Below, piece after piece: positions 48,550 through 64,000 of a DNA stretch of 64,000 bases. Source of the DNA: Cercospora beticola. Lineage: Eukaryota; Ascomycota; Dothideomycetes; Mycosphaerellales; Mycosphaerellaceae. Position 1 is the first letter of the stretch. Every line of letters starts with the position of its first letter. The stretch covers positions 1,674,001 to 1,738,000 of the forward strand of contig NC_088941.1 in the NCBI RefSeq assembly GCF_033473495.1. Reading direction: 5' to 3'. The notes under the pieces were generated by a model. That model was not told the DNA's origin, ran no database searches, and saw only the letters and a program-made list of their open reading frames with translations. The position numbers and the translations under genes are program-made.

Positions 48550-50182
48550 CTACTTCTCATCAACTCTCTTGATCGTCACCTTCACAGTCGGCTTTGTGAA
48601 GAAGCCGCTCCTGCACTCCAAACCCGTGTCCTGTGCTGGCGTGAAGTCGAACTTGCGAATGATTGTGGGCAGTAATTTCGACATCTCGAGCATGGAAATG
48701 TGTCTACCGATGCAGGTCCTTGCACCGCCTCCGAACTGTTGTTAATCCGGTCAGTCGAGGGAATAAAATAGCAGTAGGAGGAGTGTAACTCACAGCTAAG
48801 AAAGATTTGTCGATCGTGGAAGTGTCTCCGAACCATCGCTCAGGCTTGAACTCGAGAACATCGTCGCCCCAAATATCCGGTATGTGATAGATCACCCAAG
48901 GATTGACGCCTACATGTGTCTGTTCAACATTGTCAGCAATCAGAGTATGGTGCGATCGATAGTCGTTGACGAACTCCTGCTGGAAAGTATTTCCCTGCTA
49001 TTGTCGCTCCTCCTTCGGGCACCACTCGATAGAGTGTGCTTCCGACTGGCGAGTGCAGACGAAGTGCTTCTTGCATGCACGCTTGCAGGTAAGTGAGCTT
49101 TTGGCCTTGAGCGAAGGTGACCGGATCAGATAGATTGCCTGCTTCAGCCGCCTCTTCCAAATCCGCGCGGAGCTTCTCCAAGCACCTGGTATTCTGTGCG
49201 AGAAACCATATCGTGGCGCTCAAGGCAGTCGCAGTCGTGTCAGAGCCTGCGCCGAAATTCTGAGCTACAATCTCTTGCATCGAATACCTGCTCATCTTGC
49301 CTGCGCCGATAGACTTGATGCATTTGCCCATCATGTCTTCTCGATCGGTCGGGTCAGCTTTCCCTTCGAACCTGGCTTTCACCTCTCTGCCGATGACCTT
49401 GTACAAGGTGGAAAGTGGATGGATGCTAGGAATGTACTTCATGACCAGCCTCCAGAGCACATGTAATTCAGGGATCAGACCGACTCGCCCACCCCAGCGA
49501 TTATTTAGCCAGTCCACTGTGTGCAGAAGATGGTCTTTGTCGTAGCCACATTCGATCAGCCCGAACGAGCGACCGAACGTGAATTCGCCAATGACATCGA
49601 AAGCGTACAGCTGCATCCAGGTGAAAAGGTCAAATGGTTTGCCTTCTTCGGCCAGTCGATCCAAAGTCTGCACGAAACGCTCATTGGTCTGGTCAACGAA
49701 GGGCTCGTAGGAGAGTAGAGTAGAATTTGCGTAGAAATTGGCTTGAATTCTTCGTTTTTGCGCGTGTTTCTTGATGTCCATCTCAGAGAAGACATCTCTG
49801 TCATGAGCGTTCGTGCCTCCAAAAGAGGAGTAGAAGTCAGATTTCGCGAACTTGGAGCCAGCGCCGTATATTAATTGGACCGCCGCGGGATCTGTGATGC
49901 TATACCGATTGGGTGCTACGCGGACAATGTTGCCTGCCTACCATCAGCGGATTTCTACACAAAGTATAGCCTTCACAGCTGACCATGCTTCCGATGGAGG
50001 TTCTGGAGTACAACTTCGGAATCTTCCCGCCAGGCCGCATGGTAAAATTCCTAGAGACGAGTGAAACGGGCAAAAAATGGACCAGGGACATCTCTCAGGG
50101 TACTTGAATAGGCTTTCAGTAGTGAGATCAATCCATACAACACAGCGACTGCTGCTAATGGGACAAAAGAGGAAAAGAGCAT
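48550..50182 (-). pseudogene. Cytochrome P450 with a premature TAG at codon 44
   Basis: Four exons: 50182-49984, 49933-48975, 48919-48794, 48735-48550; 490 codons in all. The N-terminal membrane anchor (MLFSSFVPLAAVAVLYGLIS) and DVPGPFFARFTRL are followed by TAG (50053-50051), where relatives have Trp, and the frame continues EFYHAAWRED..LHRKHG. Everything else looks intact: NIVRVAPNRYSITDP, I-helix AGSDTTATA, EALR (ExxR), FKPERW, heme loop FGGGARTCIG with its Cys ligand. All introns are in phase with canonical ends. It resembles the fungal pisatin demethylase/benzoate hydroxylase-like group; substrate unknown. It diverges from the cluster regulator across a 0.9 kb promoter. It could be a recent null allele, a sequencing error, or rarely read through. 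An intron removing the stop would have to be about 39 nt and would delete the conserved PGP region. Confidence 0.85.
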
Positions 50183-51078
50183 GATACTTTCTCAGAGACG
50201 TGTCTCAATAATGCCTACCATGTCTTCGCACAAGGCTGCTGTGTTATACCAGCCATAACGATGGCAATGGCAATGCTTCCGAGGTCGACTGCCTTTCGGG
50301 CGATGAGCCCCAGAGCAGTGTGGGCTCAGGACGCCACACTCTCAGCTTGTCCTCGGATGTGAAGAAGACGAATGCCATGACAGAGACGGTGTTGTGAATG
50401 TGAAGTCAGTGACGCGACGAGAATTCCGACGCATTCCGGATATAAATAGAAAATCGGCTCGGCATGTCTTGGCAGCATTCGGCGCGGGAACTTCACGTAT
50501 CCTTCGGCACATCGCACCTCCTCGTCCGGATGCAAACGTTCGAGGACGTACACGACCTTGGAAGGTTGTCGTCGTCTTCACTTGCCGATGGTCGCGTAAG
50601 TTCCCCGTGGGGACGACTAGGCGCTGACTTCTGCCCCCCCGAGTGGCTGCAGACCGCTGCACCTTATTGATCTACCGGAGCCTCGTGGACATCGCAGGTG
50701 GTCGGGACTCTAGCTCGCAACTCTTCTCCAGAGCACAGATGGTCGCCATTCAGCATCGGGCCAGTGATACTCGTCTGCGTCGTCGTATTCTGCGGGAACT
50801 TTGAGGGAAGGTCTGTCGCCGTTCTGAGCAGCCAGGATTGGACACTGCCCTCAACAAACATCATGGAACTCTGCTTCTTGAGGCTGCCGCCAAAACCATG
50901 ATGGCAAAAGCGTCGACCGGGTCCAGAACACGGCAGACAACGAGAGGGTGTGGAGGCAGGGAAAGGCCGGCCACCCCGCATTAGACCAAAGCCTCCTCCA
51001 CAGCAAACCCTAATGCGCCCTTCTTGTAGCCAGTGTACGCTATGATCGCTATCCCATCAACCTGCATTCCGGGCCAAC
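50183..51078. promoter_or_regulatory. Divergent promoter of P450 and cluster regulator
   Basis: Contains TTCCG twice, 5 bp apart (50424-50438), next to a TATAAATA at about 50440-50448, and TTCCGAGGT at 50277-50285. The latter matches nine of ten bases of the inverted-repeat arm found at 58968-58977. No gene is seen here. Confidence 0.5.
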
Positions 51079-53202
51079 ATGAGCGACCGAAGACAAGAAC
51101 ATGATGGAAGTGGCAGAGTCCGCAAATACAAGCGCGACGTGTACACTCCACGAGCATGGTATGTTGCCTCGAGCAACGTTCCCGTGCCCTGGCTGATGAA
51201 AGCTTTGTACCCTACAGCGATAGCTGCAAGGCAAGAAAGATCAAATGCAGCGGCAATACTCCTTGCAGTCGCTGTGTCGATGCGAACACGGCCTGCACTT
51301 ATGCAGTGAGACAGAAGCGCTCTACACCTGCGAACAAGTCAGTCGAGCGCGCCAACAACTTGCTAGCCTCAAATCGCTAACAGAATGGTGGTCTTGTAGG
51401 CCTTCTCGCAATCGCCTGGACGAACTGGAAAAGTTTGTGCAGCTGGTTCAGGGTGGCTTAACAGCAGTCGCCAGTTGCGCCAGCCCACTACCGGCCTCTA
51501 ATCGAGCTCTGAATGGTCGTCGCGTTTCCTCAAATCGCCCTCGGCCATGTCCTTCCAGCTTCGAGAACATTCTTGGCTGGGCACAATCGTCACTGACGAG
51601 TGCTGGCATCGCTCCTGGAAGTGACGAAGAGGTGCTCTCGGTATCAACACCCGCACAAGAAGACCTCGAAGGTGGTTCATATCCCGAATGGTCGCATGCA
51701 GTCCGAGCGATCATTTCTTTGCCTCAAACCACGACTCAGGCACTGCTGGATCTGGTTGCCTCGGATGTCATATGCATGTACCCTTGTGTGAGCATCCCCG
51801 AGATCTCACTGAATCTGTTGACCTTGTATCACACAGCTTCTGCTCCTCCACGTCAAGACGACGAGGCTCCTCTGAGCCTCATGGATGTAGAGATCATCAA
51901 AGCATGCCTGCTAGTGGGTGCATGTGCTAGACAGTCAGACGACGATGGACTCGTAGCTTTGCTGGAGTCCAGTATACAATGGAGTGTCGAGACGGTCTTT
52001 GGTCAGGATGCTGTGAGCGTCGAAGATCTGGTGATGACCTGTCTCCTTGTAAGTCTTGCTCAAGCTTGTATCTTGTGTGATCAAAGAATGCTGAAGACTC
52101 GAGCAGAGTATATCTTACACCCAACGCGATCAAAGGCAGAAGGCATGGCGAATGGCAGGATGTGGTGCTAGAACTGCTCTGGAGCTATCAATTGATCTGG
52201 AGTCGTCAGTGGACCCAGAGGACGAAACCAACGCTGACAAACAACGCAAGATGCTGTTTTGCTGCATTTCGAACCTGGACTCCCGCAGCAGTCTAATGGT
52301 TGGGTTGCCACGCATCCTGCAGGATCAGATCAAGCAGCAGCATTTGAATGCATTGGTAAGTTTGCGAAGTCACTCCGGCACTATTCCTACTAAGCGCAAA
52401 TCAACAGGATCCTACTTGCCATCTTCGCGCCATGCACGAAATGGATCGCATTGCCGACGAGATCCTGGTGTTAGTCAGGGAAGCCCGCGTCGTTGGAGAG
52501 ATATCGTCCGACAAATATAGCTATCTGGATTTCCGCCTCAAGAACATCGAATCTCTATACGGCATCGGATCTGGCCAATCGCATCCGCTGACATCTGTGC
52601 AATCATGTTGTCGAATCTTTGTCAACCTGCGAGCTAATCACCTCCGCTTCCTGGTCCGTCGAGGATGCCTGAGTTCAGCTCAAGTGGCTGCGTCCAGGCG
52701 CGACTCTGTGGAGGCCCTCATGGCGGCGAACGAGCAGAACGTCTGGTTGTGTCAAAAGACGAAAGAAAATGGGCCGATCCCGACATCACTACAGTCCACT
52801 TTCCATCATTTTTTGATGGCAGCGATCTCGAGCATGTTTCTTGCTATGACCTACGACCCGACAACCTACCGAGTACAATGCCAACGCCCTTTCAACGTCG
52901 GCTTGGAAATCCTAGAGGCTCTTCCACACAAGCTACGAGGCACAGATGCGCGGCATCGCTATTCCATGGCAAATTTTAGACGACTTGCCGCTAAAGCGAA
53001 CCTCTGTGCACCGATCAAAGCGTCGACAGTGAGCAACTCAGAGGTTCTTGCCACACCAATATCGCCTGTTTCAGCTTTGCAAGCTCCTTCTGCGATTGAC
53101 AAGGCTTCCGATTCAGATTGGATGGCACTTGATTTCAATCAGCTTTTTGGACCTGTCATGTCGGATGTTAATTGGGCTTGTCTAGAGCAGAATTGGTCAT
53201 AA
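51079..53202 (+). CDS. Zn(II)2Cys6 transcription factor, likely cluster regulator
   Basis: Five exons: 51079-51158, 51218-51337, 51400-52048, 52140-52355, 52408-53202, 619 aa. The zinc cluster C-x2-C-x6-C-x5-C-x2-C-x6-C (ACDSCKARKIKC, NTPCSRCVDANTAC) is interrupted within the codon of its first Cys by intron 1. Intron 2 joins the linker PSRNRLDELEKFVQLVQ, a short coiled-coil dimerisation segment that predicts binding to paired CGG half-sites. The fungal regulatory domain follows, including KAWRMAGCGARTALELSIDL joined across intron 3. It lies inside the cluster beside the P450 and the ThDP enzyme, and the palindromes in neighbouring promoters suit such a dimer. Control of those genes is inference. 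Confidence 0.92.
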
Positions 53203-53461
53203 CCATTTGCCTCGTCTCTCGAGCTTCAGAGATGTGCAACGATATTGATCGAGAGCTATGCGGTTTGCAGACATTACCACAGCTCATGTACAATAAATTG
53301 AAATGGTTCAGAAAAAAATGTCTGAATCCGTTGTGCGGGCGAGGAGATCTGGATGGACCGTAGTGTCTTTCCTGATATATCCATTACCTCGCTCGTTGCT
53401 GCATACCGACCTCACGAAGCCGAACAATGTTGCCTGTGTCGAAGACAACTACATCAGGCGA

Positions 53462-53471
53462 TTCCGCGGAA
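53462..53471. promoter_or_regulatory. Palindrome TTCCGCGGAA, ThDP-enzyme promoter
   Basis: Perfect 10-bp palindrome about 195 bp before the ThDP-enzyme ATG, in the context GATTCCGCGGAACAT. It is identical to sites at 60308 and 62843. CCG and CGG abut as an everted repeat, a known Zn2Cys6 site layout. The remaining gap 53203-53665 shows no gene. Confidence 0.7.
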
Positions 53472-53665
53472 CATTGGCACAGGGTCCGATATAGGCAGTC
53501 AGACCGGCAGTTTTGGCCGGCATCAAGTACCGTTGCTCTGGAACCCCGGTCGCTCGATCATGCAACCGAGAAGCGGAACAAATACCACTCGGTCGCTGCA
53601 GACTGATATACAGTATAGCTAATCGACAACTATTCAACTTTTGAAGGTCTTTATCGTCCAACGTT

Positions 53666-55657
53666 ATGGCTACGTATGAAACCACCTGTCGTGTGCTGTA
53701 ATCATGCATGCTAATGGAATTATAGAGAATACTCGGCTTCGTTCGCCTTTTTCGAAGCACTATGGGATGTAAGCAACATGTCGAGGTTTCTCATTTTAGA
53801 CGAATTAATGACGATGCCACCAGGCCGGCGTTCGTTACTGCTTCGTCAATCTTGGCTCAGACCATCCCGCCATGATGGAGGCGATGGTGAAAGGGCAACA
53901 AGAAAGACGGGACAAATTCCCCAAATTTATTACCTGTCCAAGTGAGATGGTCGCACTTTCGATTGCAGACGGCTATGCTCGAGTGACTGGTGTGCCGCAA
54001 GCAGTCATTGTCCACGTCGATGTTGGCACTCAAGCACTGGGATGTGCTGTCCACAATGCCAGCGTTGGACGAACTCCGGTGCTCATATTTGCTGGCCTCT
54101 CGCCTTGCACTCAAGAAGGAGAGTATCGTGGAAGTCGAACTGAATTTATCCACTGGCTCCAGGATGTGCCGGATCAGAAAGCGATTGTTGGGCAGTACTG
54201 TCGATATTCAGCTGAGCTCAAGAAAGGCAGAAACGTCAAGCAGATGGTCAATCGAGCTTTGAGTTTTGCCACAAGGTACGTGTTTTCTTATTCCTTTTGC
54301 GAAATTGATGTTGATCTTCAACAGTGAGCCGCAAGGCCCGGTATACCTGCAAGGCACTCGAGAGGTCATGGAAGAAGTAATCGAACCATATGAGATCAAG
54401 CAGAAGTTCTGGAAACCCGCTGAGCTCGGCGGGCTCAATTCTGAACAGCTTGGTTTCGTTGTGACGACTCTGATCGATGCTGAGCAACCTTTGGTCGTTA
54501 CTGGTTACAGCGGAAGAGATGCTAAAACTGTTCCTCTGCTCGTCAAGCTTGCCGATATCTTTCCAGGTATGTGAAAAATTCACGTCTTACATCTCGCTCA
54601 GCGTGACTGATAGTGTCCAGGTCTACGAGTCCTTGATACAGGAGGCTCGAGCATGTGCTTTCCATCTGATCACCCAGGTTGGCTCAGCGTACGTTATGGT
54701 TCCCACGAAGCAATTGGAACGGCGGATGTGATTCTGGTCCTCGATTGCGATGTGCCGTGGATCAACACGCGATGCAAGCCATCAGAGACGGCCACAATCA
54801 TCCACTTGGATCTCGATCCGCTCAAACAGCAAATGCCGCTGTTTTATATCGACGCTGTCTTGCGTTGCCGTGTCAGTGTTGCAGCTGCTGTGCGACAAAT
54901 TGTTCAAGCAGTGGAAACAGACAAGGACATCGCCCAGCGAATCTCAGGCAAGCAGTACCAATACCAGCAGCGAAGGTCAGATCTGGAGAAATCCCATGCA
55001 GCTCTCCTCCAAAGCATTGCCTCAGTGGCTGTGCCCAACTCAGATGGGTCTTTCGGTGCTCCTTATCTCCTCGCTGAGGTCCGCAAGCACTGTCCACCTG
55101 AGACGATCTGGGCAGTGGAGGCTGTTACCAATACTTTCCACGTCGCAGATCAGATACAACCTACCCGACCTGGAAGCTGGTTCAATTGTGGCTCAGGAGG
55201 CCTCGGATGGTCCGGAGGTGCAGCACTTGGAATCAAGCTGGCCTCAGACGCGTTGCAAGGCGGTGCAGGAAAAGGCAGCTTTGTGTGCCAAATAGTGGGA
55301 GATGGCTGTTTCATGTTCTCTATGCCATCGAGCGTTTACTGGATCGCGCAAAGATATGGGATACCCGTGCTGACGATTTTACTGAACAATGATGGGTGGA
55401 ATGCTCCGCGGCAGAGTATGCTCTTGGTCCATCCGGATGGCCTGGGGTCGAAGGTGGATAATCAAGAGCTGAACATATCGTTCTCGCCCAACCCGGACTA
55501 TTGTACAATCGCCAAAGGAGGATCGAGAGGGACATGTTGGGCAGAGCAGGTTAGTACTGTCGAACAGTTGGCCGCCAAGCTACCAGAAGCTATTGCCGCA
55601 GTACAAGGAGGCGTTTCTGCGTTGCTGGATGCTCGAATAGTTTCTCAGAAATTGTGA
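53666..55657 (+). CDS. Thiamine-diphosphate enzyme (benzoylformate decarboxylase/acetolactate synthase-like)
   Basis: Decarboxylase or carboligase acting on 2-keto acids or aldehydes. Five exons: 53666-53673, 53726-53768, 53824-54275, 54325-54566, 54621-55657, 593 aa. The first coding exon is 8 nt (Met, Ala and two bases), joined by a GTATGA..TATAG intron to give MATEYSASFAFFEALWD. Three-domain layout: N-terminal PYR domain with the catalytic Glu58 in CPSEMVALSIADGYAR; central domain; C-terminal PP domain with the ThDP/Mg site GDGCFMFSMPSS..LLNNDGW (about 475-505). Fungal proteins of this type are annotated loosely as acetolactate synthase; lack of a mitochondrial leader argues against a valine-pathway role. 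It is convergent with the next gene, 47 bp between stops. Its promoter has the cluster palindrome. Confidence 0.9.
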
Positions 55658-55704
55658 GATCAGCTTTATACAGCTCTATTAGACACGAGATGTTTGAAGG
55701 GGTT

Positions 55705-56694
55705 TCAATTCTCCGCGATCCACTCCGCAACCTTACGTCCCCATTCCTCTTCTTCTGAAATTCCGGTCGCCAGAGCTAGAGGCGGAGAAATGTGGTTATG
55801 CCCTTTGATACTGGCAATGTCCAAGCGTGCCTTGTTCCCAAAATTTGCCTGTAATCTCTCCTTCCATTCCGTGATAAAGTTGTCCCTAGATGAGTGGAAT
55901 TCTTGCGAGTCGAGTTCTGCTGTAAGCAGAAAAGTCGGTACACCAGCTTCAATAAATTCGGGCATCTGGCCTGATACATCGAGTGAGCGAAGTAAACCCA
56001 CTGGGCTTTTCTTCGCCAGAGCATCGGGCTCGGGTCCAAAGTAGGAGCCTATGATACTAGCCAAATGCGGTGGAAACTGGAAGGGAACACTTAGAAAAAT
56101 GATGCCTCTCAGATTTGGTTGACCTGCACCACCTGCTGTGAGCTTCTGACGAGTGGCTTTGAAGTCAGGATGCAGGAGGAAAGTGGCAGTGTGTGCACCA
56201 CCTGCTGAATTGCCGACGATGTAAATCTCAATGTCAGAGCCTACTGGAGCACCAAGTTTGTCTTCATTCAGGGCGATCCAGTCGAGTGTCTTCTCCAGAT
56301 CTTCGCCTCCACTTGGGAACTTGGGTTCGCCAGCGTCGTTGATCCGTCGGTAATCTGGCACGACGACGCTGAAGCCGTAATTGTTGGCAAAGAAAGCTCC
56401 GACATTGGCATAAGCTAGTTTGTTGAAGGCTGGGAGAGGGAGGATGCGATCTCCTTGGATGAAACCTCCTCCATAGACAAAGACCAGCACTTTGTGTTTG
56501 GATTTCTCGGGAGACGAATTCGGCGACGTGTAGAGATCGAGTTTCTGTCGCTCATGGCTACCATATGAGTACGTTTGAGCGGGAGTTGACGTAATAGCTG
56601 CGGCGTTGGCATTGAGAAGGGGCGCGTAAATGTTCCATGTTGGTAGTACAACGCCTGGAAGATCTTGAGTGGCGAGAACCTTGATTTGTTCCAT
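55705..56694 (-). CDS. Alpha/beta hydrolase, hormone-sensitive-lipase type esterase
   Basis: Single exon, 329 aa. Carboxylesterase fold: oxyanion motif YGGGFIQGD (74-82; usual HGGG has Tyr for His here), VVVPDYRR, nucleophile Ser163 in GNSAGG, acid in TAELDSQEF, and His in KGHNHIS near residue 298. There is no signal peptide, so it is probably cytosolic. Likely hydrolyses a small ester or lactone made or imported by the cluster. Tandem with the MFS gene (same strand, 345 bp apart), where two CGGAA elements lie about 100 bp before its ATG. Fungal relatives are annotated as BD-FAE-like or HSL-like; the exact substrate is unknown. Confidence 0.9.
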   Translation of the reverse strand: MEQIKVLATQDLPGVVLPTWNIYAPLLNANAAAITSTPAQTYSYGSHERQKLDLYTSPNSSPEKSKHKVLVFVYGGGFIQGDRILPLPAFNKLAYANVGAFFANNYGFSVVVPDYRRINDAGEPKFPSGGEDLEKTLDWIALNEDKLGAPVGSDIEIYIVGNSAGGAHTATFLLHPDFKATRQKLTAGGAGQPNLRGIIFLSVPFQFPPHLASIIGSYFGPEPDALAKKSPVGLLRSLDVSGQMPEFIEAGVPTFLLTAELDSQEFHSSRDNFITEWKERLQANFGNKARLDIASIKGHNHISPPLALATGISEEEEWGRKVAEWIAEN

Positions 56695-56791
56695 GACGGG
56701 CGTAACAGATCCAACAGATGGGGGTGTCTGTTAAACAGTAGAACGACTGAACATTTTATATCAGTAGTTGTTGGATGCTTCTAAATTTGCT

Positions 56792-56805
56792 CGGAAGCAT
56801 CGGAA
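56792..56805. promoter_or_regulatory. Two direct CGGAA elements before the hydrolase
   Basis: CGGAAGCATCGGAA: the half-site repeated head to tail, about 98-111 bp upstream of the minus-strand ATG at 56694. It is weaker evidence than the palindromes. Further away, CGGAG..CTCCG lies near 57002-57020. The gap 56695-57039 holds no gene. Confidence 0.4.
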
Positions 56806-57039
56806 ATAGTCCATTATGTCGTGGGTGTTGCTATGCAGACAATCGCAGCTTGCGTGCTCGAACGACAGGCCATCCTGGAAGGAAGATCGCTGTGCCTGTT
56901 GCGCGAGAGAACTATCTATTCAGTGACAAAAAGAGGTCGGGATCACTTTGCGGTATGTACGGAGTTTTGAAAGGAACAGCACCCGAACTGCCGGTTCTCG
57001 GCGTCCGGAGCTTCCAATTCTCCGACCACTTCTCCGTTC

Positions 57040-58790
57040 TCACTCATCCCGACCAAACACTTGAACTTCCTCCTTATACATAGTATCAACCAAGTTGAAC
57101 GATCGCACCCACGGCCCGAAATTCACAATGAACAAAACGACTCCACCAGCAGCCACCTGAAGGAAGGCCTGCGTGCCAAATACCCATCTGGGACCGACCG
57201 CGTTGCCCCATGGAGTGAGGAAGAAGATGGAGGAGAAGCCGAGCACCAGACGATAGCAAGAGACTGCAATAGCCACCTCGTTGGCCACGTGCGAGCCAAG
57301 GGCCTCGACCAGATAGTTGCTGACAATTCCGAGTCCTGCGGCGCCACTGAACTGGCTTATTGCGACACACACAGCCAGCGACATGTAATGCCACTGCTCT
57401 TGCAGACCTGCACCGAACAAGCCGAGGCCGATGGGATAGATGATCATGATGGGCCAGATCGCGTGTAGGCGTAACTCTGGATGCCATACACCGTTGTAGA
57501 AGCGCCTGCAGATGATCAATGGCAGGCGGTCATATATTGCCGCAGCATAGAGCTGCGAAGCAATTACGCCAATCCAATTGCAGAACATGAATGTTGCGAC
57601 ACCTTTGGCCGTGAAGCTATATCCACCAGCAATCTCTGGCGTCATCAGGTAAATCGCGATAAATGTTTGGATTGCCAGGACCCAGCCCATCGTGACAGCA
57701 ACGACGAAGCCTCCTAGGACCATGATTGGGCTGAATGTCGCAAGCAGAGGTCGCAAGGCCGCTTTCTTCTCCTCCGCTGGCGTCAGATACGGCGAAACAT
57801 GGAATCCTCTAATGTTAAAATATAGTCCTTGGCGTTTCGCCCACCATCCTCGGGGCTGATCTGGCCATTGGGGTCCTCCTTCACGATGCCAGCCAGTCTC
57901 TTCGACGAACAGAAACACCAGAATGGCACAGACCGCATGGAGACCGACTTGATACCAGAACTGAATTGTCCAGCTGGCGAAGTACACAATATACCCTGAG
58001 AAGGATGGCGCGGCTGCTATACCGAACATAATCATGCCGTAGTACACGCCAATGACTTTGCCACGATCATGAAGGAAGAAGATTTCGCAGAGAAATTGCG
58101 GTCCCACTATGATAAAAGAGCTTGTCAACTCGTCGAGTCTGGTCGAGCAAGATGCGGGAGTAGTACTCACGAATACTGACGGACGCTCCCATTATACCTG
58201 CAAAAAGCCTAGAAGCCATGAAGGCTCCATAGTCTCCGCTACCTGTCATCGCCACCGACCAGATGTTCATCGCCATCGTCCCGATAACTCCCCAGAACAG
58301 CAGCCAGCATTTGCCAAATCGAGTGGATAGTGGGAACAAGAGGTACGCCCCGAATGCTAGGCCGATCATGCAGACGGCGATCTATGGGCTCAGATCAGCA
58401 CAATGTCGCTTGAGCGACACCAGAAGACCCACACTATAAGTCAGTTTTACCACTGACTGCCGGTAGAGCGTTGCCTGTGGCGCGTAACCTGAGATATTGG
58501 TGACCGATTGCATCGCCGTGGCGAATCCGGACATCATTATCGCCATGGTCAGCGCGGTCTTCTTTCCTGAGCTCCAACTCTGTAAGGACACGGATTCCAT
58601 CATTAGCCAAGAGCGACCCAGCCCTCACACGGCTACAACGTACGAGAGGATCCCGTGGATCGTCGCTCGGCTGCGGAATCAGCGCAATGCCCTGCTTGTT
58701 GAATTTGACATTCTTTTCTTTCCCGGAAGTACTTGGACTGCGCGATGCCGCACGTTCGACATGGTCGCTCTCAGTGATCTTCTCCGCCAT
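57040..58790 (-). CDS. MFS transporter, drug:H+ antiporter-like
   Basis: Plasma-membrane export or uptake of a pathway compound. Four exons: 58790-58644, 58579-58433, 58381-58171, 58106-57040, 523 aa, from the ATG of MAEKITES (codons upstream begin with TTG). The cytosolic N-terminus ends in DDPRDPLSWSSGKK, the usual entry of fungal 12-TM DHA1 carriers. Motif A-like region is AFGAYLLFPLSTRFGK; ASRLFAGIMGAS follows; the central loop VEETGWHREGG..PRGWWAKRQG is typical, as is the C-terminal half with AVCVAISQFSGAAGLGIVSN. Introns keep frame (phases 0, 0, 1). It diverges from the second hydrolase over 316 bp that contain the cluster's perfect inverted repeat. Confidence 0.9.
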
Positions 58791-58947
58791 GCCGATCAAG
58801 AGTGCAGGACAAAGTTATGTCAGAGTGTGTAGCAAGGTAACTGCTCCACTGAGACCTAGACCACTCCGAATGTATTCCCACGTGGCGATCGGTGACTTTG
58901 GCGATCTTTATGAAGTTTTGCCGGGCGAACCGCTTGCATGACAGCTC

Positions 58948-58977
58948 CACCTCGGAAGGACAATCAATTCCGAGGTG
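58948..58977. promoter_or_regulatory. Perfect 10-bp inverted repeat, shared MFS/hydrolase promoter
   Basis: CACCTCGGAA, 10-nt spacer, TTCCGAGGTG. It lies 130 bp before the hydrolase ATG (plus) and 158 bp before the MFS ATG (minus). Inverted CGG..CCG triplets with a 14-nt gap match the architecture bound by Gal4-like Zn2Cys6 dimers. The rest of 58791-59106 shows no gene. Confidence 0.75.
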
Positions 58978-59106
58978 ATAAGACATTCCAGTAAGACAAC
59001 GCCCAACCTCAAAGGTGGCGTTCGTGAACGTGACTTCGTGGATTGAGACGATACACATCACAATTTGGACAATCCGGTAACAGCAACTGTCGACAGTCCT
59101 TCCACC

Positions 59107-60168
59107 ATGTCTTCGCTCGAGCACAAGATTTACACTTTCAAGACTTTTGAATCACCGGACGGTGAAAGCCGACCGATTGATGCCAAGGTGGCGTACGGCC
59201 TCAGTGGTCCTCCAAAGAGAGCTATTGGTGAGTTGCTGGTAGTGCTCGATTCCATGTACAATGCTGAAGTGATGACCAAATAGCTGTTTGGTACCATGGC
59301 GGTGGGTTCATTACAGGAAACTACAATATGATTCCTGCTTTTGAGCTGGAGTTGCTGCATCGAAATGGGTTCGTTATTGTGTGCCCAAATTACCGATTGG
59401 TGCCAACAACCTCGCTCAAAGACGGCCCTGTCGCGGATGCAATCGATGCTTTCCAGTGGGCTCGGAACACACTTCCTGAGCTTTTCAAAGCCGATACTGG
59501 CATCGTTATCGACCCGAACAATACAGTTACACTGGGTCACTCTTGTGGCGGCGGTCTGGCATTGCTGACGGTTAGTTGATTTTTAATGGGGGAATGCTTC
59601 AGCTACAGCGGCGAACCGATGAGCATCCCAGGGTGGTCAACCCAATCCTCCTCGTGCAATCATCGACTTTTTCGGGATGAAATACTTCCGAGATCCATTC
59701 TGGACTCAGCCATCAGCTGCAATGGCAAAGCTTCCGGAATTCGATCAGTCATTTATTGACAAAGTTTTCGAAGAAGTACCCCCTCCAACTGCGACACCTC
59801 CGCCATTCGGACCAAATGGACCAGATCTGAGTAAACCGAGGAATGCGTTCATGTTCGCTCACAATAAGAAGGGAGATTATATCTCGTCTATCGTGCAGGG
59901 TGATGACTACGATGCGATCGACCCAGCGCCGTTGCTGTCGAAGCCTAATTTTCCACCGACATTCATCTTGCAAGGAACTGCGGACACAGTGGCGCCTCAT
60001 CAACATAGCGTGCAAGCGGAGGCTGATCTCAAGAAAGCAGGCAATGAGGTACAGCTGCGATTGATAGACGGTGCGCCTCACGCATTCGATATGAAGGCCA
60101 AGGAAGGGGAACCGGTGTACGACCTGATCGTGGAGGCATTCGGCTTTTTAAAAAGTCACCTGATCTGA
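59107..60168 (+). CDS. Alpha/beta hydrolase fold-3 esterase
   Basis: Three exons: 59107-59227, 59284-59570, 59632-60168, 314 aa. HSL-type motifs: YHGGGF (44-49, joined just after intron 1), CPNYRLVP, nucleophile Ser127 in GHSCGGG, LQGTADTVAP carrying the acid, and His in GAPHAFDMK. No signal peptide. It differs from the first hydrolase of the cluster in the oxyanion motif (HGGG versus YGGG) and in exon structure, so the two are not a recent duplication. Introns have canonical ends (phases 1 and 0). Shares its promoter with the MFS gene. Substrate unknown; deacylation of an ester-linked or glycosylated phenolic is possible. Confidence 0.9.
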
Positions 60169-60291
60169 ATGAACATATCGCACGATAGAACGATGTGTCA
60201 AACACTCTTCTCTCGCTTCTCTAGTGCCGAATGAGAACGTCAACCTCTCCCAACGAATCGTGCTTCCTGTTCCTGACCACGAGCCAAGCAC

Positions 60292-60317
60292 CGGAAATGC
60301 TTGACAATTCCGCGGAA
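60292..60317. promoter_or_regulatory. CGGAA-N11-TTCCG overlapping palindrome TTCCGCGGAA, dioxygenase promoter
   Basis: CGGAA at 60292-60296, then TTCCGCGGAA at 60308-60317, so three half-sites within 26 bp, about 380 bp before the dioxygenase ATG. Two more CCGCGGA sequences occur at about 60393 and 60453. The rest of 60169-60697 shows no gene. Confidence 0.65.
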
Positions 60318-60697
60318 AGGATGAGCAGCCGGTGGGCACGACGATTTCTGGCTGTCGACAATCTACTTCAACACTGTATCACTGGTCCTACCGCGGAATC
60401 GTGAATGAGCTGCAGGAGATCCTTGTGAGCGTCGTGAGTCGCATCCGAGTGACCGCGGACAAGAGTCGGCACGGCTCCAGCAGCCAAGAGCATTCTGGAA
60501 ATCCGCTGTTCTACTATGAAGCGTCATGAGACCTTCCTTTGCGAGGCCTAAGAAGCTTGCGAGATACGTCCTCGGAGCTTGCGAGTTGCGCTATTGGATG
60601 CTGAGCCGGAATGCGGCATGATGCCCTCCTCCTGTTCAAGTACTGCTAGCAGCTCACTATCTGCCGTTGTACTGATCCGCCAGATGTATCACGCAAG

Positions 60698-62450
60698 ATG
60701 TCCACCACAACTATCACCACTATCGAGACGGGCTCCAACAGGGCTGAAGAGTTGATCAAGTCTGCTGTCGCTGCGGTATGTCTCCATTCAAGTCACTTCA
60801 TTCGAGCCTTTGCGCAGACGCTCACTGCTACTAGGTCGAGAGTGTTGCCCATGGAGGTGATTTCGATGCCAAGTATGATGACGGCGACAAACCGTCGATG
60901 GAGAACCGCTTTGGTCTGAAATCATCGTGGGACCACTTCCTGCCTTCGCCAGCGGATATGCCGCAAGGACGTTTCGAGTGCGAGTTGGATGAAGTGATCG
61001 TGTATGGCGAGATACCAAAGACAATCGATGGCACCTGGTACCGGATGCTCAATGATCCACACTATCCTCCGGCCAAGGGCACTCCTTTTGTCGAGGGAGA
61101 TGGGCACTTATGCGCGTTTCGCATTCAGGATGGCAAAATTTCGATGAAAACCAAATATGTTCAAACTGAAAGATGGCTCTTGGAACGCAAGGCTGGTCGA
61201 CGACTCTTTGGAATGTACAGAAATCCATATGATGCACATCCATGCATTCGACTCGCGAACGATGCCACAGGCAATACGAACATCATCTACTGGGGAGGCA
61301 ATCTGCTCGCGCTGGCTGAGCGCGGATTACCTTATGCAATGGATCCTGATACCCTAGAGACAAGAGGAGCAGATCCATTCGCTGGACAAACTCGCGCCAA
61401 AACATTTGCAGCACATCCCAAAGTGGATCCATTCAAGAACGAATTGGTGACCTGGAGCTATAATGCAAAAGGACTGGCTACTCGTGACTTTGCCACATAC
61501 TCTATCAGTGAAGACAGCGTCATTTCGAACGAGAATTGGTATCAGCAAGACAAGACTGGGTGGCCGCACGATGGCTGGATCACAGAGAACTGGATCATCT
61601 TGGCCAACATGCCATTCACCACAAACTCGGAAGAGGTGCTGAAGCAAGGCGGTCACTATTGGACATTCGTCGATGGCCAGCCACAAGAATTCCTGGTCGC
61701 ACCACGAAAGTCTGGCGCACCTCGAAATTCTTCCTGGAAAGTTGGCGAGTTCCGCAAGTACGTCACCGATCACGGTCTAATAGTCCATGCTGGAAACGCC
61801 TGGGAAGCTGAAGATGGTACGCTGCAGCTCGAAAGCCACTTCCTGAGCTTCAACGTCTTCCCATTTTGGAACCCTCCAGGTTACAACCCCCTCTTCCAAA
61901 AGCGAATTGGGTCCGTTATACTATTGACCTCAGTCAGCCAGATGGAACCAAAGTGGCGCCTCCTGTTATTCTTCAGGAAGGCATTTATGACTTCCCAGTG
62001 TGGGATGAGCGTTTCACCACAAAGCCAACGAAATATATCATCATGGCCGAGTTTGCCAACAAATTCGAGAACCGAAGACCAGATTTCGATCGAATCGTCA
62101 GACTCAATACAGAAACTGGGGAGAAGCAAGTATTCCATGCTGGTGACGAGAGCTATGTGTTGGAGCCAGCGTTTATTCCGCGCTCTGCAGACGCGCCAGA
62201 AGGCGATGGCTATATAATTTTCTACACGACACGAGCAAGCACAAACAAGGGCGAGCTGGTAATTCTGGACACCAACGATATGTCGAAGCCTTTGGCTATC
62301 GCAGTGCTACCGTTCGCGATGAGGAAGCAGGTTCACGGCAATTGGGTTGACAATCCGCATCCGGGGAAGAAGTTACCCTCGTTGACGGCTCCCGTAAAGC
62401 AAGATGTCAGGCCAACACCCTGGCAGTCTCAGCTTCATATGGTATCATAG
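60698..62450 (+). CDS. Carotenoid/stilbene cleavage dioxygenase (RPE65 superfamily), frameshifted
   Basis: Non-heme Fe(II) enzyme splitting a C=C bond to two aldehydes; closest in style to fungal lignostilbene/resveratrol-cleaving oxygenases. Exon 1 is 60698-60775, exon 2 60835-62450. The frame is broken at a run of five C (61887-61891): one frame reads to FNVFPFWNPPGYN and the next takes up PLPKANWVRYTIDLSQPDGT. One missing C accounts for it; corrected length about 564 aa. All four iron His are present: His220 (AHPKVDP), His271 (WPHDGWITEN), His344 (IVHAGNAWE) and one in VHGNWVDN beyond the shift. The Glu of GNAWEAEDG fits the second shell. No intron of workable size can bridge the shift. 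Either a homopolymer error or true inactivation. Confidence 0.88.
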
Positions 62451-62835
62451 GAGCCCGGTGAGAGGAGTCAGAGTCTACAGTAGTGTTGCTTTGATAGTTC
62501 TAGTCGCAAGGCTTGGTGTGGGAATCGAAATATACGATTTTTTCTGGCAACCAAAACATTTCAGTGCTTGTCATCGTTTACAATTGATCTCGTTCGTCTT
62601 CCAAAAATTTGATTGGTCACAATGCCAACGAATGTGGACACCCGAAGCGTTGAAGCCTTTCGCGCAAACGAGCTAGGCTCACTCCGGTCGCCTACAAGTT
62701 GGCGGCCTCCAAATTAGTGGCCTATAGCATCGATGAGGAATAATGAGACATTGAATCCAATACTCCCGCAATCAACACAGGTATCCCTGCTGTTGTGGAG
62801 ATGTGGAGGCGCTTGATGACTTCTCCCCATCCCAG

Positions 62836-62852
62836 TTCCGAATTCCGCGGAA
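62836..62852. promoter_or_regulatory. TTCCG plus palindrome TTCCGCGGAA, monooxygenase promoter
   Basis: TTCCGAATTCCGCGGAA: one half-site and, 2 bp on, the complete palindrome (62843-62852), 230 bp before the monooxygenase ATG. The remainder of 62451-63081 has no gene. Confidence 0.7.
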
Positions 62853-63081
62853 CAGTACGAGGCCCCAGAACAACACACCTGCGGGCGACTCTGCATTCTG
62901 ACAAACACTACGGTATGTCCGGAGAACATCGTTCCTTTCGGACGGTGTAAGCAGAGTCAGTCCGGCACAAGAGTCGGGTCTCTAAACTTTAGTATTCACC
63001 GCATAGATATACAGCGACGTGAGACGGAGGTTCGATGCGCATCTCTCGTGAATACGTCTTCTCGGCCACAATACTTGAAGA

Positions 63082-64000
63082 ATGCCCTCTAAAGTCCTTT
63101 CGTCTTGGAAGCGTGCTCCAAGAGCAGAGCTCGATGAGGTTCCAACTGCAAACATACCGACAAATCCAATACCAGAAGATTTCGATGCCGATAAAATCTT
63201 TGACTCCGTCGCGGCGAGCCTTCCACGATTGAAGGCCGAGCAACTCGATGACCAAGCTTTCTGGAGAGACATTCTCGCGCTGACTGGGACATGGCGTCAC
63301 CTCCATGGTTCATCGCGAGTCGCATTGAAATGGAACGAATTGGTAGCCCTTCGCCAGCTTTCCAACTTCGCCTATGTTCGTGGGAGCGCACATGCGGCCA
63401 GGATTGGCAGTGGAGGATTTGTTCCCGGACGCTTCACATTCGATATTGGAGGAGATTGGACTGGAACTGGATCTGCGATCGTGGCGCTTTATCCTGACAG
63501 TAATGGGGATTGGAAAATCTGGTTCCTGTCCACCTTTCTTGAGTCAGTAGACGGACTTGGCAGTCCAGATGTTTTGGAGCCGGTCGTGCAGACGGATGGC
63601 TCGATCACAAACGGCCATCATGCGAACGGTGTCCGGGAAGACACGGCGTCTAGCAATGGTGTCAACGGGCATCATAGTCTCGAGGAATTTGATGTGGCCA
63701 TCGTCGGAGCTGGCCAGGGTGGTTTATCGACACTTGGACGATTCAAAGCAATCGGCTTGAAAGCTCTGGCAATCGAGAGCCATGACACCATCGGCGGTAA
63801 CTGGACGTCACGCTACGATGGAGTCAAGCTACATACTAGCAGATACTACTCGAACTTTCCATTCGGCAAACACTTCAATAGCGAGGAGTTGCCGTATTAC
63901 CTGCGACCTCAAGACCTGGCTCGTGGATTCCAGCAGTATGTTGCCGATTATGGCCTTGATGTTAGGCTTTCCTCCAAAGTCGAATCTGCGACGTGGGACG
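63082..64000 (+). CDS. Flavin-containing monooxygenase (YUCCA-like), 3' end cut by the right edge
   Basis: Open from the ATG at 63082 to the window edge, 306 codons without intron or stop. Residues ~1-170 form an N-terminal domain seen in fungal members (a SnoaL-like or steroid-isomerase-like fold is likely: WRDILALTGTWRHLHG, GRFTFDIGGDWTGTGSAIVA). A low-complexity His/Asn/Gly linker follows, then the FAD-binding motif VAIVGAGQGGLSTLGRFKAI and IESHDTIGGNWTSRYDGVKL. Such proteins use NADPH and O2 for hydroxylation, Baeyer-Villiger oxidation or oxidative decarboxylation. Last visible gene of the cluster, same strand as the dioxygenase; its promoter carries the shared palindrome. The NADPH motif and C-terminus lie outside the window. 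Confidence 0.88.
   Translation, partial: MPSKVLSSWKRAPRAELDEVPTANIPTNPIPEDFDADKIFDSVAASLPRLKAEQLDDQAFWRDILALTGTWRHLHGSSRVALKWNELVALRQLSNFAYVRGSAHAARIGSGGFVPGRFTFDIGGDWTGTGSAIVALYPDSNGDWKIWFLSTFLESVDGLGSPDVLEPVVQTDGSITNGHHANGVREDTASSNGVNGHHSLEEFDVAIVGAGQGGLSTLGRFKAIGLKALAIESHDTIGGNWTSRYDGVKLHTSRYYSNFPFGKHFNSEELPYYLRPQDLARGFQQYVADYGLDVRLSSKVESATWD

What the first reader, a model, noticed from the sequence alone, without database searches (positions are those of the whole stretch)
48550..64000. Co-regulated catabolic cluster around a stilbene-type dioxygenase and a ThDP enzyme
Eight adjacent genes (P450, Zn2Cys6 regulator, ThDP enzyme, two unrelated esterases, MFS carrier, RPE65-type dioxygenase, flavin monooxygenase) form one block. 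The chemistry links up: C=C cleavage gives aromatic aldehydes, a benzoylformate decarboxylase/benzaldehyde lyase-type enzyme could ligate or decarboxylate them, and the monooxygenase, P450 and esterases could trim them. Fungal phenylpropanoid-degrading clusters anchored by stilbene oxygenases are known as a class, but I do not recognise this combination with a ThDP enzyme. Detoxifying a plant stilbenoid is one hypothesis; making a carboligated product is another.
Basis: partly seen in the sequence, partly recalled or inferred. Interest (0 to 1): 0.85.

Follow-up and report, generated by a model that had tools for sequence, protein, structure and literature searches.

The report
Fungal gene block around alkene-cleaving oxygenase
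A leaf-spot fungus carries a compact block of eight enzyme, transporter and regulator genes that probably breaks down an aromatic plant compound; its central oxygenase lacks a residue that known stilbene-cutting relatives need, so the target is probably not an ordinary stilbene, and two genes of the block look broken in this genome.

Summary
The eight genes are real (P450, Zn2Cys6 regulator, ThDP enzyme, two esterases, MFS carrier, RPE65-type oxygenase, flavin monooxygenase), from about 48.55 to 65.04 kb, in Cercospora beticola or very close kin. (1) The oxygenase is not a typical stilbene dioxygenase: it sits in a fungal clade (support 100/100) in which the lysine that binds the substrate's 4-hydroxyl in LSD4 and MapADO is Ala or Ser. 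The genome has two other, lysine-bearing paralogues. (2) The ThDP enzyme is fold-wise nearest to benzoylformate decarboxylase but belongs to NCBIfam NF006203, reaction unknown; it is an accessory paralogue, spread over fungal classes in a way that suggests horizontal transfer, and possibly linked to the same oxygenase clade on one metagenome contig and one Coniochaeta scaffold. (3) The palindrome TTCCGCGGAA occurs exactly three times in 64 kb, before the ThDP, oxygenase and monooxygenase genes, which suggests a shared Zn2Cys6 regulator. Against a working pathway here: the P450 has an in-frame stop and the oxygenase a frame break; an intact oxygenase is listed for C. berteroae. A new variant of a known kind (fungal aromatic-catabolic cluster); substrate and co-expression are not shown.

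The parts
48550..50182 (-). Cytochrome P450 gene with an in-frame stop codon in exon 1; the piece after the stop keeps the haem-binding FGGGARTCIG, EALR and AGSDT motifs
   Evidence: pieces; PF00067 8.5e-63 on the piece after the stop; motifs
51079..53202 (+). Zn2Cys6 transcription factor, 5 exons, 630 aa; cluster CDSCKARKIKCSGNTPCSRCVDANTAC
   Evidence: PF00172 4e-10; PF04082 below its cut-off
53462..53471 (.). TTCCGCGGAA palindrome before the ThDP gene
53666..55657 (+). ThDP enzyme of family NF006203, 5 exons, about 598 aa (first exon and start are uncertain); 100% identical over the aligned part to a C. beticola protein (P0001)
55705..56694 (-). Alpha/beta-hydrolase esterase 1 (BD-FAE / Abhydrolase_3), 329 aa; nearest solved structure 4zrs esterase
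57040..58790 (-). MFS transporter (MFS_1), 4 exons, 523 aa
59107..60168 (+). Alpha/beta-hydrolase esterase 2 (Abhydrolase_3, hormone-sensitive-lipase-like), 3 exons, 314 aa
60308..60317 (.). TTCCGCGGAA palindrome before the RPE65 gene (a one-mismatch copy lies at 60389-60398)
60698..62450 (+). RPE65-type (carotenoid/stilbene oxygenase family) gene, with a frame break near 61.88-61.91 kb; the residue at CAO1 Lys164 is Ala; an intact homologue of 564 aa is listed for C. berteroae (P0121)
62843..62852 (.). TTCCGCGGAA palindrome before the flavin monooxygenase gene
63082..64000 (+). Flavin monooxygenase (Pyr_redox_3 / FMO-like) with a long N-terminal extension, 614 aa, intact; ends at 65041 outside the window

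Best explanation
This is an accessory aromatic-catabolic (detoxification) gene cluster of Cercospora. Proposed working: the MFS carrier moves the compound; esterases and, where intact, the P450 trim it; the RPE65 enzyme (Fe2+, four His) cuts a C=C bond conjugated to an aromatic ring that has no free 4-hydroxyl, giving carbonyl products; the ThDP enzyme, benzoylformate-decarboxylase-like in fold, then breaks or remakes a C-C bond next to such a carbonyl; the flavin monooxygenase oxidises a product. A Zn2Cys6 factor, probably the cluster's own, switches on at least the ThDP, RPE65 and flavin genes through TTCCGCGGAA. Shown here: gene content, family placement, loss of the lysine in the whole sampled clade, the promoter palindrome, and the accessory, class-crossing distribution of the ThDP paralogue. 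Inferred: substrate class, order of steps, identity of the regulator. In this genome the pathway is probably impaired, because the P450 and RPE65 genes are interrupted.
For: Eight catabolism-type genes without another gene recognised between them. TTCCGCGGAA: 3 exact copies in 64 kb, all in intergenic DNA of this block; 1 of 500 dinucleotide shuffles of the 15.1-kb region had any 10-bp palindrome three times. RPE65 piece nearest to N. crassa CAO1 (E 5.3e-65); the model of the intact Cercospora homologue fits CAO1 best. Of the best 120 of 161 homologues, 59 have Ala or Ser at Lys164 and 35 have Lys; the A/S rows form one clade at 100/100 (22 of 41 rows). ThDP: the catalytic Glu and the His that aligns with His70 of benzoylformate decarboxylase are in 36 of 36 sequences; Foldseek's top matches are (4-hydroxy)benzoylformate decarboxylases. 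Accessory ThDP clade of 15 rows, SH-aLRT 100; 13 between-class pairs share 72-84%, against 66-72% for 13 between-class pairs of the other copy. Possible linkage of the ThDP and RPE65 clades: one jgi contig length of 24,714 in both lists, and one Coniochaeta scaffold.
Against: Two of eight genes are interrupted here. The exact palindrome is absent from the other promoters of the block; with one mismatch the window has 5 matches against 1.98 expected (5 of 100 shuffles reach 5) and with two mismatches of the 11-base form there is no excess (17 against 15.9). A genome-wide count could not be had. The flavin monooxygenase's best listed relatives beyond Cercospora are only 48-50% identical, so it is not clearly part of the same travelling set. 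Contig identity rests on equal lengths. No expression data, no substrate test. Bacterial NF006203 genes show no consistent neighbours: at most 5 of 113 flanking frames share a Pfam family, and RPE65 lies nearby in 2 of 56 loci.
Confidence: 0.55

Rival explanations
1. A true stilbene or phenylpropanoid detoxification cluster: the RPE65 enzyme cleaves 4-hydroxystilbenes or isoeugenol-like compounds despite the missing lysine, and the other enzymes clear the aldehydes.
For: Nearest solved relatives are CAO1, MapADO and lignostilbene dioxygenases; the tyrosine of the Tyr-Lys pair is kept; some relatives are named isoeugenol monooxygenase by annotators, which is no test.
Against: Lys164 is replaced in the whole sampled clade; MapADO's Y136 and K169 are described as essential for placing the double bond (PMC12308385, abstract). 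No aldehyde dehydrogenase, gentisate dioxygenase, salicylate hydroxylase or fumarylpyruvate hydrolase family among the Pfam matches of the eight genes.
Confidence: 0.2
2. A small biosynthetic cluster: RPE65 cleavage makes an aldehyde or diketone that the ThDP enzyme joins to another carbonyl, and the P450, flavin monooxygenase and esterases decorate the product.
For: ThDP enzymes of the benzoylformate decarboxylase fold can join aldehydes (recalled); P450, flavin monooxygenase and MFS genes are usual in biosynthetic clusters (recalled).
Against: No polyketide synthase, NRPS or terpene synthase domain among the proteins scanned (not every neighbouring frame was scanned). The ThDP family also has a second copy in many of the fungi in the capped list, which points to general metabolism.
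Confidence: 0.13
3. A decaying or chance neighbourhood: the genes lie together but no longer work, or never worked, as one pathway.
For: Two interrupted genes; the flavin gene seems to have another history; GC content is unremarkable.
Against: Six of eight genes are intact in the models made; both RPE65 pieces are still 95% (356 of 375) and 97% (180 of 185) identical to the C. berteroae protein, so any loss is recent; shared palindrome.
Confidence: 0.12

Closest known systems
Gentisate-catabolism (GC) clusters with sdoG (Greene et al. 2014, PMC3914699)
   Same: A fungal cluster that can hold an RPE65-family oxygenase, with a C6 regulator and an MFS transporter; patchy distribution and horizontal transfer (passages)
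   Different: Of the four genes called fully conserved there (fphG, ctfG, gdoG, sahG) only a C6 factor is here; the word thiamine does not occur in that paper's main text
CAO1 of Neurospora crassa (resveratrol cleavage oxygenase)
   Same: Best sequence and fold match; the histidines and Tyr133 are kept
   Different: Lys164 is Ala and Phe91 is Val; 35% identity in the fold match of the intact homologue
MapADO of Moesziomyces aphidis and bacterial lignostilbene dioxygenases
   Same: Same family and fold
   Different: K169 (MapADO) and Lys-134 (LSD4) matter for the 4-hydroxyl; the residue aligned with MapADO K169 is Ala (chain numbering taken as 8 higher than the paper's, inferred from the Tyr)
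Benzoylformate decarboxylase (Pseudomonas putida)
   Same: Nearest solved fold; Glu47 and His70 have counterparts
   Different: About 20% identity in the fold match; family score far below the NF005485 cut-off
NF006203 / PRK08327 thiamine pyrophosphate-requiring protein
   Same: Passes the curated cut-off
   Different: The model names no reaction; the cluster copy is a separate fungal paralogue

Membership tests
Stilbene dioxygenase (CAO1/LSD type) | RPE65 family fold | tested here: met
   PF03055 in both pieces; model of the intact homologue P0121 fits CAO1
Stilbene dioxygenase (CAO1/LSD type) | Four iron-binding histidines | tested here: met
   Three columns checked by script: His in the query piece and in 116-119 of 120 homologues; the fourth, in HGNWV, is in piece 2 and aligns with CAO1 in P0121
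Stilbene dioxygenase (CAO1/LSD type) | Tyr that binds the 4-hydroxyl | tested here: met
   Tyr at the CAO1 Tyr133 column
Stilbene dioxygenase (CAO1/LSD type) | Lys that binds the 4-hydroxyl | tested here: not met
   Ala at the CAO1 Lys164 / MapADO Lys169 column
Stilbene dioxygenase (CAO1/LSD type) | Cleaves stilbenes in vitro | not testable with these tools
   No assay
NF006203 ThDP family | Score above the curated cut-off | tested here: met
   522.8 against 456 bits
Benzoylformate decarboxylase | Score above the NF005485 cut-off | tested here: not met
   114.6 against 493 bits
Benzoylformate decarboxylase | Catalytic Glu47 and His70 (numbers recalled) | tested here: met
   E58 and H81 of P0001, placed by the alignment, in 36 of 36 sequences
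Benzoylformate decarboxylase | Active-site His281 | tested here: inconclusive
   The pairwise alignment ends before this residue; no His in the WINTRCKP stretch, read by eye
Gentisate-catabolism (GC) cluster | fphG, ctfG, gdoG and sahG present | tested here: not met
   Only a C6 factor is present among the eight genes; definition from PMC3914699 passages
Baeyer-Villiger monooxygenase | FxGxxxHxxxW fingerprint (recalled) | tested here: not met
   The protein reads YRGTAVHSTAF; the motif is recalled and was compared by eye

The most novel reading that the evidence does not exclude
A transferable fungal module, not recognised in the papers I could search, pairs a lysine-less RPE65 oxygenase with an accessory NF006203 ThDP enzyme. 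The two act in turn on one bond: the oxygenase opens a C=C in a methylated or otherwise 4-blocked aromatic (for instance a flavonoid or isoflavone ring bond, as might occur in sugar-beet phytoalexins) to a 1,2-dicarbonyl, and the ThDP enzyme splits that dicarbonyl; an esterase removes the ester left by ring cleavage. This would be a route for cutting flavonoid-type compounds distinct from both stilbene cleavage and quercetinase-type cleavage.
Probability: 0.12. Interest if true: 0.78.

Novelty: new variant of a known kind. Interest (0 to 1): 0.55.

Why it matters
It marks out a fungal clade of RPE65 enzymes (59 of the best 120 of 161 homologues listed) that has lost a residue thought to tie these enzymes to 4-hydroxylated substrates. 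That tie is named as a limit of alkene-cleaving biocatalysts (PMC12308385, abstract), so members of this clade are natural candidates for wider substrate scope. It also gives a testable setting (partner enzyme, promoter motif, regulator) for the NF006203 ThDP family, for which the family model used here names no reaction.

Tried and rejected
Bacterial neighbours as a clue to the ThDP function: 56 loci found, several of them short. tblastn of eight queries (three RPE65 proteins, flavin, two esterases, MFS, P450 piece) against all 56 found only RPE65, in 2 (L056, L057), 8.6-9.4 kb away. Frames were listed for 26 of the 56 loci; 113 of the 150 frames, from 23 loci, were scanned with Pfam and gave no consistent partner. 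Frame calling in GC-rich DNA was crude; frames over 700 aa, the 16 frames of L032, L058 and L059 and 21 others were dropped.

P450 against solved structures: only general matches, uninformative. GC content and tandem repeats: nothing notable. Literature: searches. Judged by titles and starts of abstracts, no paper on a fungal cluster that joins an RPE65 oxygenase and a ThDP enzyme came up (the two papers listed were not opened). The library lacks most subscription journals, and a 2018 survey of plant-biochemistry-driven fungal clusters that I recall did not come up. Of six papers I saw term passages and, where these held it, parts of the abstract (PMC3914699, PMC5133782, PMC12308385, PMC8191317, PMC6097328, PMC6271817); all others as search listings.

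Idea that a short intron explains the RPE65 frame change: 48 GT-AG pairs of 23-160 nt join the two frames, 6 of them shorter than 40 nt and 42 longer; none of the 42 lies wholly in 61840-61925, so an ordinary intron would, I infer, remove residues that the intact homologue has.

The first ThDP and regulator models had wrong phases and were replaced.
Full report
What is there. The window is G000:C7:1674001-1738000 of a 36.07-Mb genome in 10 contigs. The cluster's ThDP protein is 100% identical, over 99% of its length, to a Cercospora beticola protein (P0001); the best named hits of the RPE65 and flavin proteins are from C. berteroae (95%) and C. kikuchii (94%) (each name stands for a cluster of 9 or fewer sequences). 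So this is C. beticola or very close kin. Gene models made by hand-placed splicing give, left to right: P450 (-), Zn2Cys6 factor (+), ThDP enzyme (+), esterase 1 (-), MFS (-), esterase 2 (+), RPE65 oxygenase (+), flavin monooxygenase (+, ending at 65041). Pfam agrees with each. Further right lie a GH3 glucosidase gene (C-terminal domain matched), a small frame without a Pfam match, a sugar transporter, a nitroreductase-family gene and an SPX/EXS gene. The first ThDP exon and start are uncertain.

Two interrupted genes. The P450 has an in-frame stop after its hinge. The RPE65 gene changes frame near 61.88-61.91 kb. A database protein that runs on in the wrong frame after this break (P0122, 439 aa) is listed on a contig of 2,967,425 bases, while the window's contig has 3,002,656 bases; so the break may be present in a second assembly, though shared reads cannot be excluded. 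Both pieces remain 95% (356 of 375) and 97% (180 of 185) identical to the intact C. berteroae protein, so the change is recent or an error. The other six models are intact.

The oxygenase. Its first piece is closest to N. crassa CAO1 among solved structures, and the AlphaFold model of the intact homologue (mean pLDDT 80.6, pTM 0.83) fits CAO1 best. In the LSD4 complexes the substrate's 4-hydroxyl is held by Tyr-101 and Lys-134 (PMC8191317, passages); in MapADO Y136 and K169 are described as essential for placing the double bond (PMC12308385, abstract). Here the Tyr is kept and the Lys is Ala. Of the best 120 of 161 homologues, 47 have Ala, 12 Ser, 35 Lys and 26 another letter or a gap at this column. 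On a FastTree of 105 rows (104 of the 120 plus the CAO1 fragment; seven rows among P0121-P0231 and the nine rows P0232-P0240 were left out) the 55 Ala/Ser rows need one change. On an IQ-TREE tree of 41 rows (40 of the 120 plus CAO1) the 22 Ala/Ser rows form one clade at 100/100, with Lys in the five bacterial enzymes and in CAO1. CAO1 Phe91 is Val here, but lysine-type fungal enzymes also vary there, so I give it no weight. Of six other RPE65 loci fetched from the same genome, two read Lys at this place (C9:2.24 Mb and C2:4.03 Mb), one reads Ser (L014), and three gave no reading. The two Lys-type genes are better candidates for stilbene cleavage.

The ThDP enzyme. It passes NF006203. The model (mean pLDDT 86.8, pTM 0.90) is nearest to 4-hydroxybenzoylformate and benzoylformate decarboxylases, at about 20% identity. 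The Glu and His that align with Glu47 and His70 are in 36 of 36 fungal and bacterial sequences. The genome has one further copy, at C3:3.97 Mb, 61-63% identical. In a 44-row tree (40 of the best 120 of 3,698 hits plus 4 of 56 bacterial loci) the cluster copy falls in a 15-row clade, SH-aLRT 100, apart from the other fungal copies. I compared six members of that clade and six other copies, from the same four classes but mostly other species (class names recalled): the 13 between-class pairs share 72-84% in the accessory clade and 66-72% among the other copies; for Cercospora alone the ranges are 72-76% and 67-69%. Within Dothideomycetes the accessory pair Cercospora-Elasticomyces (73%) is less alike than Cercospora-Coniochaeta (76%), while the other copies of Cercospora and Elasticomyces share 80%. 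This favours horizontal spread; a slower rate in the accessory clade is not excluded.

Linkage elsewhere. ThDP hit P0015 and RPE65 hit P0123 both list a jgi contig of 24,714 bases: probably one contig, though equal length is not proof. Coniochaeta sp. 2T2.1 has ThDP P0002 and RPE65 P0135 and P0148 on a scaffold of 4,358,774 bases; the distance is unknown. Cadophora sp. MPI-SDFR-AT-0126 lists RPE65 P0163 and flavin gene P0246 on a contig of 2,982,448 bases. Most other hits show no such match in the columns given. The flavin protein's best relatives beyond Cercospora have 48-50% identity.

Shared promoter motif. TTCCGCGGAA occurs at 53462, 60308 and 62843, about 190-380 bases before the start codons of the ThDP, RPE65 and flavin genes, and nowhere else in the window; of the 86 loci then held, 11 contain it: nine from this genome, all overlapping this block, and two bacterial ones. 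I noticed it by eye, so the fair control is any 10-bp palindrome: 1 of 500 shuffles of the 15.1-kb region had one three times. The core TCCGCGGA occurs four times in the window, once outside the block (0 of 100 shuffles reach four). It is a CCG-CGG palindrome of the kind that Zn2Cys6 factors bind (recalled). Looser forms are weak: with one mismatch 5 matches against 1.98 expected (5 of 100 shuffles reach that), with two mismatches of the 11-base form no excess (17 against 15.9). The other promoters of the block lack the exact site. The genome-wide count could not be had.

Reading. The best-supported account is an accessory aromatic-catabolic cluster with perhaps a three-gene regulon, whose oxygenase probably does not take 4-hydroxystilbenes as its main substrate. 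A review lists a flavanone (betagarin) and an isoflavone (betavulgarin) as phytoalexins of the beet family, citing work on sugar-beet leaves (PMC6271817, table passage and reference), so a flavonoid-type target is a possible but untested guess; the same gene clades in fungi such as Penicillium and Coniochaeta argue for a wider plant-aromatic role. Compared with the published GC clusters (PMC3914699, passages), the RPE65 family, a C6 regulator and an MFS carrier are shared, but the gentisate-pathway genes are missing.

Noticed in passing
L009:6179-8936 (window 66179-68936) and L010:839-2609: GH3 glucosidase gene with a signal-peptide-like start (by eye), and a sugar transporter, right of the cluster; could deglycosylate and import a plant glucoside, but they lack the promoter palindrome
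   Followed up: partly
L012 (G000:C9:2235000-2244999): Lysine-type CAO1-like gene near a Zn2Cys6-like frame (the latter read by eye): a better candidate for a stilbene dioxygenase locus in this genome
   Followed up: partly
L056 and L057: Two bacterial contigs carry an RPE65 gene about 9 kb from an NF006203 ThDP gene
   Followed up: partly
homologue list (P0197-P0209, in part): A further fungal RPE65 clade has Glu or Asp at the CAO1 Lys164 position (5 of 41 rows, support 100/99), a second change at this site
   Followed up: partly
window:61693-61731: Imperfect 18-base tandem repeat inside the RPE65 coding sequence
   Followed up: no
window:22002-22009: One further TCCGCGGA core outside the cluster
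   Followed up: no
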